Part shown: positions 50,241 through 57,655 of the stretch, piece after piece | Layout: each line of letters begins with the position of its first letter | How positions within the stretch are numbered: the stretch's first letter is position 1 | Origin: Bifidobacterium breve | GTDB taxonomy: Bacteria; Actinomycetota; Acidimicrobiia; IMCC26256; JAENVU01 | Direction of reading: 5' to 3' | Assembly: GCA_945865605.1 (NCBI GenBank) | Contig: CAMBEL010000005.1 | Span: 1 to 64,000, forward strand | DNA length: 64,000 nt | The notes under the pieces: model-generated | The model's database searches: none | Told to the model about the DNA's origin: nothing | Seen by the model: the letters and a program-made list of their open reading frames with translations, nothing else | Program-made: the position numbers and the translations under genes

Positions 50241-50714
50241 ATGGACCAAACCCATCTGTCTCAGGCTGCGCATGACCGACTCCAAGAAGAGCTCGCGATG
50301 CGTTCAGGCCCCAACCGTCGCGACCTCGCCGACACGATTGAACGCGCACGCGAGTTAGGCGACCTCAAAGAGAATGCCGACTACCACGCGGCTAAAAATG
50401 AACAGGGGTTCAATGAAGCGCGTATACGCCAAATAGACGCGATGCTCAAAGATGTCGTAATCGTCGATACGACAGCTGCAGATGTCGTGGCACCTGGAAC
50501 GATCGTAGGAATCCTCATCGAAGGCGAAGCCGAGGCGACCGAGTATCTCATCGGATCAATAGAGGAACGGCCAGGCGACCGAGACGTTCTTTCTACGTCT
50601 TCTCCCCTAGGCAGAGTGCTTATGGGGAAGGCCGTCGGAGACCGAGCGAGCTACGAGACCCCGAGAAAAACAACGCTCAACGTTGAAGTCGTTACGATCC
50701 GTTCCGCGGAATAA
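50241..50714 (+). CDS. greA: Transcription elongation factor GreA
   Basis: 157-aa GreA. The N-terminal coiled-coil carries the acidic tip ARELGDLKENADYHAAKNEQ, which inserts into the RNA polymerase secondary channel to rescue backtracked complexes. The C-terminal FKBP-like domain includes SSPLGRVLMGKAVGDRASYE. It starts with ATG after a 41-base gap from the YceI gene. Its 3' end overlaps the convergent hyuB stop by 23 bases. Confidence 0.95.
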   Translation: MDQTHLSQAAHDRLQEELAMRSGPNRRDLADTIERARELGDLKENADYHAAKNEQGFNEARIRQIDAMLKDVVIVDTTAADVVAPGTIVGILIEGEAEATEYLIGSIEERPGDRDVLSTSSPLGRVLMGKAVGDRASYETPRKTTLNVEVVTIRSAE

Positions 50715-52239
50715 TTGCCCCCCAGGCACCACCACCTGGCGTTAGAACGCGGAGCACATCGCCGGCATCCAATTGAATGGTCACTTTGTCTGGCAATCGT
50801 TCAGCGCGCGTTTCATCGCCCCCGCGCAATAACCAGTTCTCTCCGATGGCGCCAGCACCGCCTCCAGTCAGACCCCACGGTTGAGTCACACGTCGTTCAC
50901 TAATGATTGACACTGTCACCGCCTCCAACATCTCTAGTTCCCTGACAATGCCATCACCTCCCGCGAACTCACCGGCACCACCACTGTCTCTACGTAACCC
51001 GTAACGCACGACTCTCATCGGTAGCAAGCGCTCTAGCGCCTCGACCGGCGTATCACGGGTGTTTGTCATGTTGGTATGAACGCCGCTCATTCCCGCGCGT
51101 CCAGGACGGCCACCTTGCCCACCACCGACCGTCTCGTAATACACCCATCCTTCGCCACCGACTAGGAGGTTGTTCATCGTCCCCTGGCTAGCAGCGCCCA
51201 CTTTTTCCGGTGCGACTGCTGCAAGTGCACGCAGGCAGACATCCGCGATGCGTTGGCTTACTTCTACGTTGCCGCCGCCGACGGCCGCGGGGAAAGCGGC
51301 TGCAACAATCGACCCTGCCGGAGCTTCCACGCGTACCGCGCGCAGCGCTCCTCCGTTGGCGGGAATCGTAGGGTCGGTCACGGCACGCAATGCAAACCCA
51401 ACCGCGCTCACCGTCACCGCGTGCACGGCATTGACGTTGCCCGGACGCTGCATGTCTGTTCCGGTGAAATCGAACGTCGCAGTGTCGCCGTCGATGACAA
51501 GAGTCAGTGCTATTCGCGCTGGCGATTGTTGATGCGGGAGTGATCCCGTCGAATCCATAACGTCTTCCGCTGTCCAGACTCCATCGGGGAGCGAAGCGAT
51601 CGCGGCCCGCATGCGCCGTTCTCCGTAATCCACAACCGCTGCAAATGGCGAGCCAGCGAATGTTGCAAGCCGTGCAACCCCCAAGCGGTTTGCGCCAATC
51701 TGTGCATCGAGATCGGCGCGGCGCTCGTCTGGAGTCCTTGACGACGCGACAAATATCTCGACGATGCCATCGTCAAGCACAACGGGAGGGAGACGCAATC
51801 CTTCCTGCGCAATGTGCGTCGCCTCCGGCGGCATTGACCCCGGAGTCATACCGCCTAGATCTGCGTGGTGCGCCCTGTTAGCCGCCCACCCAACCAGCAC
51901 TCCATCAACAACACAGGGGGCAACCAACGTGACGTCATTCAAGTGGGTCCCGCCAGCGAACGGATCATTGACGATGATCTGGCCGCCTGATCCAACTGCG
52001 TATCCACATGCATCAATTGCGGCTTGAACGGCAGCTGGCATTGAGCCGAGGTGAACGGGAATGTGTTCCGCTTGGCCAAGCAACTCACCCTCGGGGGTAA
52101 ACACAGCAGCAGAACAGTCTTGGCGTTCCTTGATATTTGGACTACTTGCGCCGCGCTGCAACACAACGCCCATCTCGTATGCGATGCCAGAGAGCCTCGA
52201 AGTCAAGATCTCGAGATCGGCTGGATCGAGTTCGGTCAT
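50692..52239 (-). CDS. hyuB: Hydantoinase/oxoprolinase family protein, HyuB-type subunit
   Basis: 515-aa HyuB subunit of an ATP-dependent hydantoinase/5-oxoprolinase-like enzyme. Recognised segments are SPNIKERQDCSAAVFTPEGE, NDPFAGGTHLNDVTLVAPC and NRAHHADLGGMTPGSMPPEA near the N-terminus, and YGLRRDSGGAGEFAGGDGIV later. Its start overlaps the hyuA stop by four bases (ATGA). The gene ends inside the 3' end of convergent greA (23 bases shared). The actual substrate (hydantoin, 5-oxoproline or another lactam) is unknown. Confidence 0.9.
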   Translation of the reverse strand: MTELDPADLEILTSRLSGIAYEMGVVLQRGASSPNIKERQDCSAAVFTPEGELLGQAEHIPVHLGSMPAAVQAAIDACGYAVGSGGQIIVNDPFAGGTHLNDVTLVAPCVVDGVLVGWAANRAHHADLGGMTPGSMPPEATHIAQEGLRLPPVVLDDGIVEIFVASSRTPDERRADLDAQIGANRLGVARLATFAGSPFAAVVDYGERRMRAAIASLPDGVWTAEDVMDSTGSLPHQQSPARIALTLVIDGDTATFDFTGTDMQRPGNVNAVHAVTVSAVGFALRAVTDPTIPANGGALRAVRVEAPAGSIVAAAFPAAVGGGNVEVSQRIADVCLRALAAVAPEKVGAASQGTMNNLLVGGEGWVYYETVGGGQGGRPGRAGMSGVHTNMTNTRDTPVEALERLLPMRVVRYGLRRDSGGAGEFAGGDGIVRELEMLEAVTVSIISERRVTQPWGLTGGGAGAIGENWLLRGGDETRAERLPDKVTIQLDAGDVLRVLTPGGGAWGAIIPRNGS

Positions 52240-54017
52240 TGTTCAGACCTTTCAAGCAACAACGCTCCAAGAGGACCGGGCTCGGCGCGCCAACCATTCG
52301 GTATCCAGATGGTGCAGTCTGGCTCACTAATAACTTCCGGCCCGCGCGCGCTTTGCCGAACGAGTGCGGGTAACGCTGAAGGATCGACCTGTGCGGCAAC
52401 CTGCGCTCGCGCTCTCAACGCGATTACTTCGACCTGAACACCGGGTCGCATGTATCCGTTGCGTCGCTCATGTTCGATCGCGAACTCTTCGATTGAACTG
52501 ACTGTGATTTCGTGGCTCTGGCCTTCGTAACGACAATCAACAAAACTCTCGACCATCGGGGAACCCTCGAGCAATCCGGAAACGTCGTTTTCCAACTTCC
52601 GTAGTGCATCGGCGAGCCCGCCTGTACTTCCAGGCGTCGGCCATGACCGAACGAGATCGCGCTGCATTGGGGAGGTCAACAGACCGACAGCCGAAAACAC
52701 GCCAGCTCTCGACGGAATAATCACAGCCCGCATCTCAAGGGCTTCTGCGATCGCGCACCCATGAAGCGGTCCCGCTCCACCGAATGCGACCAACACAAGT
52801 TCACGCGGATCTACGCCCTGAGACACGGTTACGAGTCGGACGGCGCGCTCAATGGAAGCGTCGACGACGCGCACTACGCCCTCTGCCGATACCCCAGCGT
52901 TTTCGAGCGCCGCGCGCGCCAGGTCGATCCGCAATGGTCCAATGCCAGGGAACGATGTCCCCTCCGGAATTCTCCCTAAAACTAGGTCGGCGTCAGTCAC
53001 GGTCGGTTCGGTTCCTGAGCCATAACACGCAGGTCCCGGTACCGCTCCCGCGCTGTTCGGTCCAACAACGAGAGCACCGCCAGCATCAATTCGTGCGATG
53101 GAACCGCCTCCGGCTCCGATCGTGTGGATCGACAACGAAGGAAGTCGAATCGGGAACCCACCGACCGTGTGGCTAGACGTCGGTTCAGGAACTCCGCCTC
53201 GGATCAAACAGACATCGGTGCTCGTACCACCCATGTCGAATGCAACCGCATCGCCGAATCCGCAAGCAGTAACCAAAGCCGATGCAGCGCGCACGCCGCC
53301 CGCTGGACCCGACAGCAATAGTGCGGCAGGTGTTGCTGCCGCTTCGCGAGCAGGTACCAGGCCCCCGGCCGAAGTCATAACGAGCACCGTCTCGCCGAGA
53401 TCATCGATCGCCTCGAGATACCTCCTGCAGATCGGCCGCAGATACGCATTGGCAACCGTCGTCACTGTGCGTTCGTATTCACGGAACTCAGGTGAGACCT
53501 CGTGCGAACAAATGACATCCATGCCGCGGTTCCGCAACTCTTGAGCCACCGCGATCTCGTCGGTCGCGTCGAGGTCGGCATGCAGGAGGCACACAGCTAC
53601 CGCGTCCACATCAGTCGGTATCGCGTCAAGATCCGTGAGGTCGAGTTCATTGACCCTGTGGCCGCTGGCATCGATTCGTCCCGTCACCTCAAATCGCAGT
53701 TCGCGCGACACCAACGGAATCGGCCGATCAACGAATGTGTCATACAAAGACGGTCGCGATTGGCGCGCGATCTCGATGACGTCGGCGAAACCTTTCGTAG
53801 AAACAAGCGCCACCCGCGCCCCTTGGCGCTGCAACAATGCATTGATTGGCACTGTCGTCCCATGAGCGAGAACACCAGGACGACCAAGGCCTAGCGCTTC
53901 GATACCAGCACCAACCGCAGACGCGGGATCTCGCGGTGTAGAAGCAATCTTGACCACACTGCCATCGTCGCCAACAACATCCGTGAACGTCCCGCCCGTA
54001 TCAACGCCAACCCGCAT
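52236..54017 (-). CDS. hyuA: Hydantoinase/oxoprolinase family protein, HyuA-type ATPase subunit
   Basis: 593-aa HyuA subunit with an ASKHA ATPase fold. Motifs are RVGVDTGGTFTDVV at the N-terminus, LAHGTTVPINALLQRQG, AVAFDMGGTSTDVCLIRGG and VAFGGAGPLHGCAIAEAL. It is somewhat shorter than many HyuA proteins (about 650-700 aa) but the core motifs are present. It couples ATP hydrolysis to ring opening of a cyclic amide with HyuB, whose start overlaps it by four bases. It is separated from the antiporter gene upstream by 40 bases. Confidence 0.9.
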   Translation of the reverse strand: MRVGVDTGGTFTDVVGDDGSVVKIASTPRDPASAVGAGIEALGLGRPGVLAHGTTVPINALLQRQGARVALVSTKGFADVIEIARQSRPSLYDTFVDRPIPLVSRELRFEVTGRIDASGHRVNELDLTDLDAIPTDVDAVAVCLLHADLDATDEIAVAQELRNRGMDVICSHEVSPEFREYERTVTTVANAYLRPICRRYLEAIDDLGETVLVMTSAGGLVPAREAAATPAALLLSGPAGGVRAASALVTACGFGDAVAFDMGGTSTDVCLIRGGVPEPTSSHTVGGFPIRLPSLSIHTIGAGGGSIARIDAGGALVVGPNSAGAVPGPACYGSGTEPTVTDADLVLGRIPEGTSFPGIGPLRIDLARAALENAGVSAEGVVRVVDASIERAVRLVTVSQGVDPRELVLVAFGGAGPLHGCAIAEALEMRAVIIPSRAGVFSAVGLLTSPMQRDLVRSWPTPGSTGGLADALRKLENDVSGLLEGSPMVESFVDCRYEGQSHEITVSSIEEFAIEHERRNGYMRPGVQVEVIALRARAQVAAQVDPSALPALVRQSARGPEVISEPDCTIWIPNGWRAEPGPLGALLLERSEQ

Positions 54018-54057
54018 TAGATCAGCGTGTCACAACGCGAAGAGACGAATGAACCGA

Positions 54058-56001
54058 TCATTCAACCGTTGCAACGACAAGCGAGGTGAGTTCTTCCAAC
54101 CGGTTGCGCTGTGTCGGGTCTAGATCTCCTAATGCGAGACCGAGTAGGTAGAGAGACCAAACGGTCTCAGCTCGTTTGGTATGCGCAGCGAGTTGAAGAA
54201 CAGACTCTTCGGTTAACCCGTCAAGTCGCCCAGCCGCAGCGCGAAGGAGCGCAGCATCTACCACCAATCTCGCCACCGTATCTTCGGCTTCGTGCCCCAA
54301 GCCAAGACGACCCACGAGACTTCGAGCGACGGGTTCCGCGGAGTTATCTTCGCCCGCGGCCTCCAACACGAGCGCCGATAACAACACGAGTTCTGGATGC
54401 GCCAGGTGTTCGTGTGCGGCGAGCGCGAACGGATCCGCCTTTATCTGTCTGCCAACTCGGTCTACGAGTTCAAACCTCAAGACATGGCTTGGTTCAATGA
54501 TGAATGGGTCGGCTCGTCTCCGGGCAACGGCGTTCGCTAGTTCGGGTAACGACCGCGCGAGTACACCGGTTGTCTCCAAGAATCGCCACGTCCGTTCATT
54601 GCCATGCGCGAGCAGGTCGAATAACCGCGCGGCGGCCGCAGGAGTCCAGGCGGTATCGCTCGAGCTAGGCCGACCTAGGCGATCGAGCAGCTTGGTTCCG
54701 GGGCGCGCTCCACCCGTGACAGCACCAGCGGCTTCGAGAGCGATCGTGAGCAACTCGCTTTCCGGAGGTTGAGCAGCTAGATCAACGATTCCATCATCAA
54801 CCCGCAGCCACCCGAGGTCCGGCATCGAGTCGGGCGTTATCTGGGCAGTTTCATCCCATACCTTTTCGAGACGCCGTCGCAACAAAGGCGGAGCCATAAG
54901 GGTCGTAATAAGAACCACGAGTAGGAGAGCCGCGTAAAGCGGACCATCGAGGATCCCGCGCTGGAGACCGATCGTCGCAAAGATCAGTCCAACTTCGCCT
55001 CGGGGAAGCATCCCTAGCCCAATAACCCACCGGTCACCCGGCGCCCCTACCGCGCCCCAGGCTGAGACCAACTTGCCAATCACCCCGACAACAAGCAGGG
55101 CCGTGGCGATTGCCAACACTTGACCATCGAAGAACGAACCGATATCTATTGAGATACCGATCCCAAGGAAGAACACTGGGATAAAGAGATACCCAACCGG
55201 CGCCAGCTCCCGCTCTATGCGCTCCTTTTGATCACTGCGTGACAGCGCAAGTCCAGCCACAAATGCGCCCACGACTGGAGCGAGGCGCGCAAAGCTCGCG
55301 ATTTGGGCGAACGCGAGCGTGAAGGCGAGAGCGATCGCAACCAATGTGCCGGCTGACCGCGCGTATTTCTGTACAAACCGAAAAAATGGTGGACCAAGAC
55401 GCCCACCGATCACGACAGTAACGATGAGAAATCCTGCTGCGACGCCGACGATCCCTGCGACGGCGAGCATCGAGACACTGCCATCGGCGACGATGCGCAC
55501 AACCACCGTCAGAATCACGAGACCGAGCACATCATCGACGACTGCAGCACCGAGCACAGTTCTTGCCTCGATCGATGAGAGCGCGCGCAAATCGCTAAAC
55601 ACGCGCGCCGTAAGGCCAACACTTGTGGCCGCAAGGGCTGCACCTAAGAACAGCGATACGTTCGCCACTTCACCGAAGGCCATGCCGACGGCGAAGCCAC
55701 CAAGCATCGGGAGCACTACGCCGAGCAGCCCGACGCCTATCGACGCTCGCCCCACCGCGGCGAGCCCCTTTACATCCATCTCGAGCCCAACCTGCAACAA
55801 CAAGAGGATCACGCCTAGTTCGCCAAGAACCAGCAGCACTTCGCTCGGACCGACCAAAGCGAGTACCGATGGACCAACAATGACGCCAGCAACGATCTCG
55901 CCAACGACGGTCGGAATCCGAATTCGTTCTGCGACCTCAGCCGCAATCTTCGCGGCAACAAGAACTACGAGAATGTCTAATAGGACTTCGCCAACGTTCA
56001 T
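54058..56001 (-). CDS. Na+/H+ (cation:proton) antiporter with C-terminal GlnD-HD-like domain
   Basis: 647 aa. Residues 1-375 are a 12-helix CPA-type antiporter with the ion-binding VVDD (D155/D156) and APVVGAFVAGLALSR. Instead of a TrkA-N/RCK domain, residues about 450-645 resemble the HD region of GlnD: WRFLETTGVLARSLPELANA, EPSHVLRF, HPELVLLSALVLEAAGE and DTVARLVVDAALLRAAA line up with the order of GlnD's TGVLGRYLPEF, VDEHTLR, LFHDIAKG and VRHHL. The HD pair is lost (LVLEAAGE), so the tail should be non-catalytic. A regulatory function is inferred. It is divergent from leuC. Confidence 0.85.
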   Translation of the reverse strand: MNVGEVLLDILVVLVAAKIAAEVAERIRIPTVVGEIVAGVIVGPSVLALVGPSEVLLVLGELGVILLLLQVGLEMDVKGLAAVGRASIGVGLLGVVLPMLGGFAVGMAFGEVANVSLFLGAALAATSVGLTARVFSDLRALSSIEARTVLGAAVVDDVLGLVILTVVVRIVADGSVSMLAVAGIVGVAAGFLIVTVVIGGRLGPPFFRFVQKYARSAGTLVAIALAFTLAFAQIASFARLAPVVGAFVAGLALSRSDQKERIERELAPVGYLFIPVFFLGIGISIDIGSFFDGQVLAIATALLVVGVIGKLVSAWGAVGAPGDRWVIGLGMLPRGEVGLIFATIGLQRGILDGPLYAALLLVVLITTLMAPPLLRRRLEKVWDETAQITPDSMPDLGWLRVDDGIVDLAAQPPESELLTIALEAAGAVTGGARPGTKLLDRLGRPSSSDTAWTPAAAARLFDLLAHGNERTWRFLETTGVLARSLPELANAVARRRADPFIIEPSHVLRFELVDRVGRQIKADPFALAAHEHLAHPELVLLSALVLEAAGEDNSAEPVARSLVGRLGLGHEAEDTVARLVVDAALLRAAAGRLDGLTEESVLQLAAHTKRAETVWSLYLLGLALGDLDPTQRNRLEELTSLVVATVE

Positions 56002-56254: not shown

Positions 56255-57655
56255 ATGCCCAAGACGCTCAGCGACAAGATCTGGGAAAACCATGTCGTGC
56301 ATCGCGCAACCAATGAGCCCGACCTTCTCTATATTGATCTGCACCTAGTCCACGAAGTCACGTCGCCGCAGGCATTCGATGGCCTTCGCATGAACGGCCG
56401 CACGGTACGACGCCCGGAACTCACTGTCGCCACGATGGATCACAACGTGCCCACGGAGGGACTCGAACGCGGAATCGAAGATCCCGTATCGCGGCGCCAA
56501 ATCGAAGTACTCGCAACGAACTGCGATGAGTTTGGGATCAAGTGCTACGGAATGGGAGACCGGCTACAGGGAATTGTGCACGTGATCGGGCCCGAGCAGG
56601 GACTGACACAACCCGGCATGACGATCGTTTGTGGAGATAGTCACACCTCTACCCACGGCGCGTTCGGCGCGCTCGCCTTCGGTATCGGCACCAGCGAAGT
56701 TGAACATGTACTCGCGACCCAGACTCTGCCGCAACAGCGGCCAGGAACAATGGCGGTAACCGTCAATGGTGAACTCCCTGATGGAGTTACGGCAAAGGAT
56801 CTCGTGTTGGCGATCATCGGTCGCCTCGGTACGGGCGGCGGAATCGGTTCAGTCATTGAGTACCGCGGTTCTGCCATTCGCAGTCTCTCGATGGAAGGGC
56901 GAATGACCGTCTGCAACATGTCGATTGAAGCTGGCGCGCGCGCAGGGCTAATCGCGCCCGATGAAACTACATTTGCTTACCTCAAGGGTCGGGCGTTCGC
57001 TCCTGAGGGCGACCAATGGGAACGCGCGCTCGATGCGTGGCGCAAACTGGCAACCGACGAAGGTGCAACCTTCGACAGCGAGGTCATCATCGATGCCGCG
57101 ACTCTCGCTCCCAGCGTCACATGGGGTACGAACCCAGGCCAGGTCACCACGATAGATGCCGTTGTTCCTGATCCCAACTCGTACGACGATCCAGCGCAAC
57201 GCGAAGCCGCTACTCGCGCGCTGCAATACATGGGACTCACGGCCGGCACGCCGATCCGAGAGATTTCGGTCGATACCGTGTTCATCGGATCTTGCACTAA
57301 CTCGCGCATTGAAGATCTTCGTGCGGCTGCAGCTGTTGTGCGAGGACGTTCTGTTCGTGCAGGAGTGCGAACTCTGGTCGTTCCAGGCTCCTTCGCCGTC
57401 AAGGAACAAGCCATCGCCGAAGGACTCGACAAGGTGTTTCGCGATGCCGGATTCGATTGGAGAGAACCGGGATGTTCGATGTGCTTGGCGATGAACCCAG
57501 ACAAACTCACAGTTGGCGAGAGATGCGCGAGCACTAGCAACCGCAACTTTGAGGGGCGGCAAGGAAAGGGCGGTCGCACCCACCTAGTGTCTCCTGCCGT
57601 CGCCGCCGCAACTGCTATCGCGGGTCACTTCGCCACGCCAGAGGACCTGAACTGA
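56255..57655 (+). CDS. leuC: 3-Isopropylmalate dehydratase large subunit
   Basis: 466-aa aconitase-family subunit of leucine synthesis that isomerises 2- to 3-isopropylmalate. The [4Fe-4S] cysteines are visible in [17 protein letters not shown] and [36 protein letters not shown] and the final [14 protein letters not shown] are conserved. GGAG lies about 11 bases before the ATG. The 253-base divergent region between the antiporter and leuC shows no terminator or leader peptide. Its stop shares one base with the leuD start (TGATG). Confidence 0.96.

What the first reader, a model, noticed from the sequence alone, without database searches (positions are those of the whole stretch)
54058..55400. 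Cation:proton antiporter fused to a degenerate GlnD-like HD domain
Typical CPA2 antiporters end in a TrkA-N/RCK domain. Here the residues after about 450 run TGVLARSLPEL, EPSHVLRF, HPELVLLSALVLEAAGE and VVDAALLRAAA, which lines up with the order of GlnD's TGVLGRYLPEF, VDEHTLR, LFHDIAKG and VRHHL. The HD pair is replaced by L-E, so the domain should be catalytically dead but could bind a nucleotide or a nitrogen-signalling protein. A transporter with a GlnD-derived sensor would be an unusual regulatory fusion. Leucine genes are next to it.
Basis: partly seen in the sequence, partly recalled or inferred. Interest (0 to 1): 0.7.

Follow-up and report, generated by a model that had tools for sequence, protein, structure and literature searches.

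The report
Ammonium-linked antiporter with GlnD sensor tail
This gene joins a sodium/proton-type membrane exchanger to a dead copy of the cell's nitrogen-sensor enzyme GlnD; relatives keep GlnD's amino-acid-sensing ACT domains and usually sit beside ammonium-transporter and PII genes, which points to ion exchange controlled by nitrogen supply, while the copy in this window has lost those ACT domains.

Summary
The ORF (window 54058-56001, minus strand, 647 aa) is a NapA-like CPA2 antiporter followed by a region homologous to the HD domain of GlnD (TIGR01693 E 2e-8; profile-profile E 2e-19, with shuffled controls negative). The catalytic histidines are gone across the 26 family members compared. 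Most relatives are about 900 aa and continue through both GlnD ACT domains, so the ancestral architecture is antiporter + pseudo-HD + ACT-ACT, i.e. GlnD without its nucleotidyltransferase. The window copy lost its ACT domains through a 736-nt deletion relative to its closest sister (or an assembly error). Trees give one origin of the fusion, in Acidimicrobiia and one further family outside that class, with several later losses of the tail. In 17 of 29 fusion genomes (17 of 19 outside the window's own leuCD-linked lineage) an ammonium transporter and/or PII gene lies beside the fusion, against 3 of 21 related solo antiporters. Best reading: a cation/proton antiporter allosterically controlled by nitrogen status (probably glutamine), working with Amt/PII. 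Ligand, direction of control and ion are inferred. Leucine genes are only local synteny. No description found in the papers searched.

The parts
54058..56001 (-). complete ORF: NapA-like antiporter with GlnD-derived C-terminal region, 647 aa, ACT domains missing
54880..55953 (-). Na_H_Exchanger (CPA2, NapA-like) transport domain, residues 17-374; D156-D157 and K310 invariant in 29 of 29 fusion members
   Evidence: PF00999 E 3e-64; NapA 5bz2/4bwz E 1e-61; conservation
54139..54657 (-). GlnD-derived pseudo-HD domain, residues 449-621; catalytic His lost
   Evidence: TIGR01693 positions 369-555 E 2e-8; hhalign; motif table
54056..54062 (-). junction of a deletion that removes 736 nt (rest of linker and both ACT domains) relative to sister locus L002; 5 unmatched nt and a premature TGA
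54030..54056 (-). remnant of the original 3' end of the gene (CGGTTC...GCGTTGTGA), out of frame, as in L002
52236..54017 (-). neighbour: hydantoinase A-like gene (name from sequence; not scanned here), shared with some close relatives only
56255..57655 (+). neighbour: leuC, divergent; local synteny only

Best explanation
The gene encodes a NapA-type cation/proton antiporter that acquired, once, the C-terminal half of GlnD (HD + ACT + ACT, without the nucleotidyltransferase) as a cytosolic regulatory module. The HD part has lost its metal site and serves as a scaffold, perhaps still as a docking surface for PII. The ACT pair is the sensor, most likely for glutamine as in GlnD. The protein works beside a dedicated ammonium transporter and PII, adjusting Na+/H+ (or NH4+/H+) exchange to nitrogen status, either to balance charge and pH during ammonium uptake or to vent excess ammonium. 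SHOWN here: domain homology, loss of HD catalytic residues, conserved antiporter ion site, single origin, purifying selection, Amt/PII gene neighbourhood, and ACT loss in the window copy. INFERRED: glutamine as ligand, direction of control, ion transported, contact with PII. The window copy, lacking ACTs, would be a constitutive or deregulated antiporter, or an early pseudogene.
For: Domains; hhalign E 2e-19 with clean controls. ACT folds matched by the L004 C-terminal model (Z 8-12; pLDDT 70). HD catalytic positions: His of HD in 14/14 GlnD vs 1/26 fusions; the GDH-motif His in 14/14 vs 0/26; the second His of the RHH-type motif in 14/14 vs 1/26. Antiporter D156, D157, K310 invariant in 29/29, the electrogenic CPA2 motif of PMC6181914. 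dN/dS 0.11 antiporter and 0.16 pseudo-HD (window vs L002); 0.14 HD and 0.13 ACT (L002 vs L004). Single origin: antiporter tree and C-terminal tree. Amt (PF00909) and/or PII beside 17/29 fusions vs 3/21 solos, mostly same strand and under 700 nt away, upstream in some genomes and downstream in others. In actinobacteria glnD itself lies in amtB-glnK-glnD operons and GlnD responds to glutamine (PMC4285133).
Against: No ligand or transport data exist. ACT domains bind many amino acids, so glutamine is by descent only. Ten fusions of the window's lineage have no Amt or PII gene beside them. Tail and ACT losses recur, so the module is dispensable in some lineages. The neighbourhood contrast (Fisher p 0.003) does not correct for relatedness, and an independent-pairs test on the tree had too few pairs to decide. 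The HD part could not be modelled with confidence (pLDDT 56).
Confidence: 0.6

Rival explanations
1. The tail is a docking platform for PII (GlnB/GlnK): the pseudo-HD, derived from the domain that handles modified PII in GlnD, binds PII or its modified form and so gates the antiporter, as GlnK gates AmtB. The ACT domains are secondary.
For: PII genes lie beside several fusions (L124, L129, L130, L111, L186, L174); [quoted passage not shown] Pseudo-HD is kept without ACTs in some lineages (L111/L186, L117, window).
Against: Loss of the metal site says nothing on PII binding; most fusions have Amt but no PII gene directly beside them. No interaction could be tested.
Confidence: 0.25
2. The tail is an inert or stabilising remnant of an accidental fusion in an amt-glnB-glnD operon, drifting and being lost repeatedly.
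For: Independent losses of ACTs or of the whole tail; the tail diverges faster than the antiporter (66% vs 78-80% identity).
Against: dN/dS near 0.13-0.16 across HD and ACT, conservation of the ACT motifs across many families, and a very old single origin.
Confidence: 0.12
3. The window's missing ACT domains are an assembly or sequencing artefact in a metagenome-assembled genome; the real gene is full length as in L002. (This concerns only the window copy and is compatible with the main explanation of the family.)
For: The genome is incomplete (86%, 115 contigs); the sister genome has an intact 900-aa gene in the same neighbourhood.
Against: The junction keeps both gene ends with only 5 unmatched nt and the HD part is under purifying selection; other lineages have lost ACTs too.
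Confidence: 0.3

Closest known systems
GlnD, PII uridylyl/adenylyl-transferase (TIGR01693)
   Same: C-terminal HD + ACT + ACT in the same order; same genomic company (amt, glnB) in many relatives
   Different: Nucleotidyltransferase replaced by an antiporter; HD metal site lost; ACTs missing in the window copy; far below the family cut-off (29.9 vs 519.4 bits)
NapA of Thermus thermophilus (CPA2 Na+/H+ antiporter, 4bwz/5bz2)
   Same: Transport domain (E 1e-61), invariant D-D and K
   Different: The solved NapA chains end after the transport domain; here a GlnD-derived cytosolic module follows
KefB/KefC glutathione-gated K+ efflux antiporters
   Same: CPA2 antiporter with a C-terminal ligand-sensing module
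   Different: Kef uses an RCK/KTN domain; here pseudo-HD + ACT; transport domain much closer to NapA than to KefC (1e-61 vs 2e-23)
AmtB-GlnK ammonium gate
   Same: Membrane transport controlled by the PII nitrogen-signalling network; same gene company
   Different: Regulator is covalently fused and derives from GlnD, not PII; the transporter is an antiporter

Membership tests
GlnD (PII uridylyl/adenylyl-transferase) | N-terminal nucleotidyltransferase domain | tested here: not met
   Residues 1-380 are Na_H_Exchanger; the TIGR01693 match starts at position 369 (window) or 351 (L006)
GlnD (PII uridylyl/adenylyl-transferase) | HD domain with catalytic His/Asp residues | tested here: not met
   Homologous domain present, but catalytic His lost in the window and in 25-26 of 26 fusions vs 14/14 kept in GlnDs
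GlnD (PII uridylyl/adenylyl-transferase) | two C-terminal ACT domains | tested here: not met
   Absent in the window copy (deletion); present in most relatives
GlnD (PII uridylyl/adenylyl-transferase) | score above NCBIfam cut-off | tested here: not met
   29.9 bits vs 519.4; L006 132.7
NapA-type CPA2 antiporter | CPA2 / Na_H_Exchanger fold | tested here: met
   PF00999 E 3e-64, TIGR00932 E 3e-54 (below its own cut-off of 238 bits)
NapA-type CPA2 antiporter | Asp-Asp ion site and Lys of electrogenic CPA2 | tested here: met
   D156, D157, K310 in 29/29 fusion-clade members; significance from PMC6181914
NapA-type CPA2 antiporter | electrogenic Na+/H+ exchange | not testable with these tools
   needs transport assay
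Kef-type antiporter | C-terminal RCK/TrkA_N domain | tested here: not met
   No such Pfam or NCBIfam domain hit C-terminally, E up to 10
glutamine-binding ACT sensor | glutamine binding | not testable with these tools
   ACT folds matched by profile and model in relatives only; ligand unknown

The most novel reading that the evidence does not exclude
A separate route of nitrogen control: ammonium transport paired with an antiporter whose gate is a repurposed GlnD (pseudo-HD + ACT-ACT) that reads glutamine directly, so that intracellular nitrogen status sets Na+/H+ or NH4+/H+ exchange without covalent PII modification.
Probability: 0.4. Interest if true: 0.8.

Novelty: new variant of a known kind. 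Interest (0 to 1): 0.66.

Why it matters
GlnD is known as an enzyme that modifies PII. Here its regulatory half has been moved, minus both catalytic activities, onto an ion antiporter and kept for a long time, in many lineages beside ammonium-transporter and PII genes. If confirmed, it ties ion and pH homeostasis directly to nitrogen sensing, gives a natural GlnD regulatory fragment free of catalysis for finding the glutamine site, and adds an ACT-gated type to the known RCK-gated antiporters. The gene neighbourhood makes the function testable.

Tried and rejected
Leucine link: leuCD adjacency found only in the window's lineage, rejected as functional. Chance or low-complexity similarity: rejected by shuffled and reversed profiles. 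Direct PDB sequence match for the tail: none for the window's tail at E up to 10 and one insignificant hit, E 0.57, for the full tail of L006. Structure jobs were limited to four related sequences, hence shallow. The independent-pairs test of Amt linkage against fusion had too few pairs. Literature searches for an antiporter-GlnD or antiporter-ACT fusion found nothing relevant, but the library lacks most subscription journals.

Full report
WHAT IS THERE. The ORF at 54058-56001 (minus) encodes 647 aa. Residues 17-374 are a Na_H_Exchanger domain (PF00999, E 3e-64), closest among solved structures to Thermus thermophilus NapA (E 1e-61) and much less to KefC (E 2e-23). The electrogenic CPA2 residues, two adjacent Asp (D156, D157) and a Lys (K310), are invariant in 29 of 29 fusion-clade members; their meaning is taken from PMC6181914. 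No RCK domain was found. Residues 449-621 match the HD region of GlnD (TIGR01693 positions 369-555; E 1.7e-7 in the whole protein, 2.4e-8 for the C-terminal part).

IS THE GlnD SIMILARITY REAL? Yes. A profile of the fusion pseudo-HD regions against a profile of 14 genuine GlnD HD domains from related genomes gives probability 99.2 and E 2e-19 over 190 columns; the window sequence alone gives 96.5 and E 9e-10; five column shuffles and the reversed profile give under 0.5. The His of the HD pair is present in 14/14 GlnDs and 1/26 fusions; the His of the GDH motif in 14/14 and 0/26; the second His of the RHH-type motif in 14/14 and 1/26; the Asp of the HD pair is still Asp in 19/26, and the window has Glu. 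The structural test could not be completed: the model of this part has pLDDT 56.

Homologues are mostly around 900 aa and run on through two ACT domains. The L006 protein (901 aa) matches TIGR01693 from 351 to 846 (E 1.4e-38) and PF01842 ACT (E 5e-16); a model of the L004 tail (pLDDT 70) matches ACT-domain structures at Z 8-12. The graft is thus GlnD minus its nucleotidyltransferase. The closest sister, L002 (86% identical, a Lake Baikal MAG), has the intact 900-aa gene in the same neighbourhood. Relative to it the window lacks 736 nt, has 5 unmatched nt at the junction and keeps the last 27 nt of the gene out of frame. This is either a real deletion or an assembly error. Other members also lack ACTs: L111/L186 (593-aa frames, pseudo-HD only) and L117 (stop after the HD part). 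The window genome has a separate normal amt-glnB-glnD cluster on contig C21, so the fusion does not replace GlnD.

DISTRIBUTION AND HISTORY. Among 61 related genomes, about 18 carry a closely related antiporter, most of them fused; further fusions occur through the class and in one family outside it (G319, G333). The antiporter tree puts all fusions in one supported clade (SH-aLRT 97), with later losses to solo antiporters (G030/G020, G173, G200) and separate ACT losses. The tail tree likewise separates all fusions from all GlnDs by one branch (SH-aLRT 97). dN/dS is 0.11 (antiporter) and 0.16 (linker + HD) for window vs L002, and 0.14 (HD) and 0.13 (ACT) for L002 vs L004: the module is under purifying selection. 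The synonymous distances to L004 are near saturation, so those ratios are approximate.

GENOMIC CONTEXT. leuC/leuD lie beside the gene only in the window's own lineage. Elsewhere the gene next door is an ammonium transporter: PF00909 was confirmed at E 1e-94 or better for nine neighbouring genes in eight loci, and PII genes are adjacent in several, for example fusion-amt-glnB-amt-glnB in L124 and fusion-glnB-amt in L129 and L130. Counted uniformly within 2.5 kb, 17 of 29 fusion genomes have Amt and/or PII beside the fusion (17 of 19 outside the leuCD-linked lineage), against 3 of 21 solo relatives (Fisher p 0.003, not corrected for relatedness). Some loci have Amt upstream, others downstream, nearly always on the same strand, so the link is not one frozen arrangement. 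Sister G002 has an Amt of the fusion-associated class about 20 kb from its fusion; the window's genome shows only the Amt of the glnB-glnD cluster, but it is incomplete.

MECHANISM. In actinobacteria glnD normally lies in an amtB-glnK-glnD operon, and GlnD answers to glutamine (PMC4285133). A duplicated or rearranged operon in which the regulatory half of glnD became fused to an antiporter gene would explain both the architecture and the neighbours (inference). I propose that the ACT pair binds glutamine and, through the dead HD scaffold, sets antiporter activity to nitrogen status while Amt imports ammonium; PII may dock on the tail. Ligand, sign of control, ion and PII contact are not shown. 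A window protein without ACTs would be constitutive, PII-controlled only, or decaying.

VERDICT. I rate it a new variant of a known kind: a CPA2 antiporter with a sensor module not previously described in the papers searched.

Noticed in passing
L107 5530-7137 (minus), G335:C20: 535-aa stand-alone protein with pseudo-HD + ACT-ACT and neither nucleotidyltransferase nor antiporter; branches between GlnDs and the fusion tails. No antiporter or Amt beside it.
   Followed up: partly
L111 4366-6147 and L186 (G280, G274): 593-aa antiporter with a strongly eroded pseudo-HD and no ACTs, in a same-strand run with amt, glnB, amt, glnB.
   Followed up: partly
L116 5435-7420 (G042) and L117 4012-6204 (G191): Fusion frames ending inside or just after the pseudo-HD; whether truncation, frameshift or error was not settled.
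   Followed up: no
G000:C21:17529-21523: Ordinary amt-glnB-glnD cluster of the window's genome, with an Amt of a class different from that beside the fusions.
   Followed up: partly
L109, L112, L115: Solo antiporters of or near the fusion clade that still sit beside an ammonium transporter, suggesting that the antiporter-Amt link can outlast, or may predate, the GlnD tail.
   Followed up: partly
window 50692-54017: Pair of hydantoinase A/B-like genes overlapping by 4 nt, directly behind the truncated fusion gene; present in L002, L003 and L131 but not in L004.
   Followed up: no
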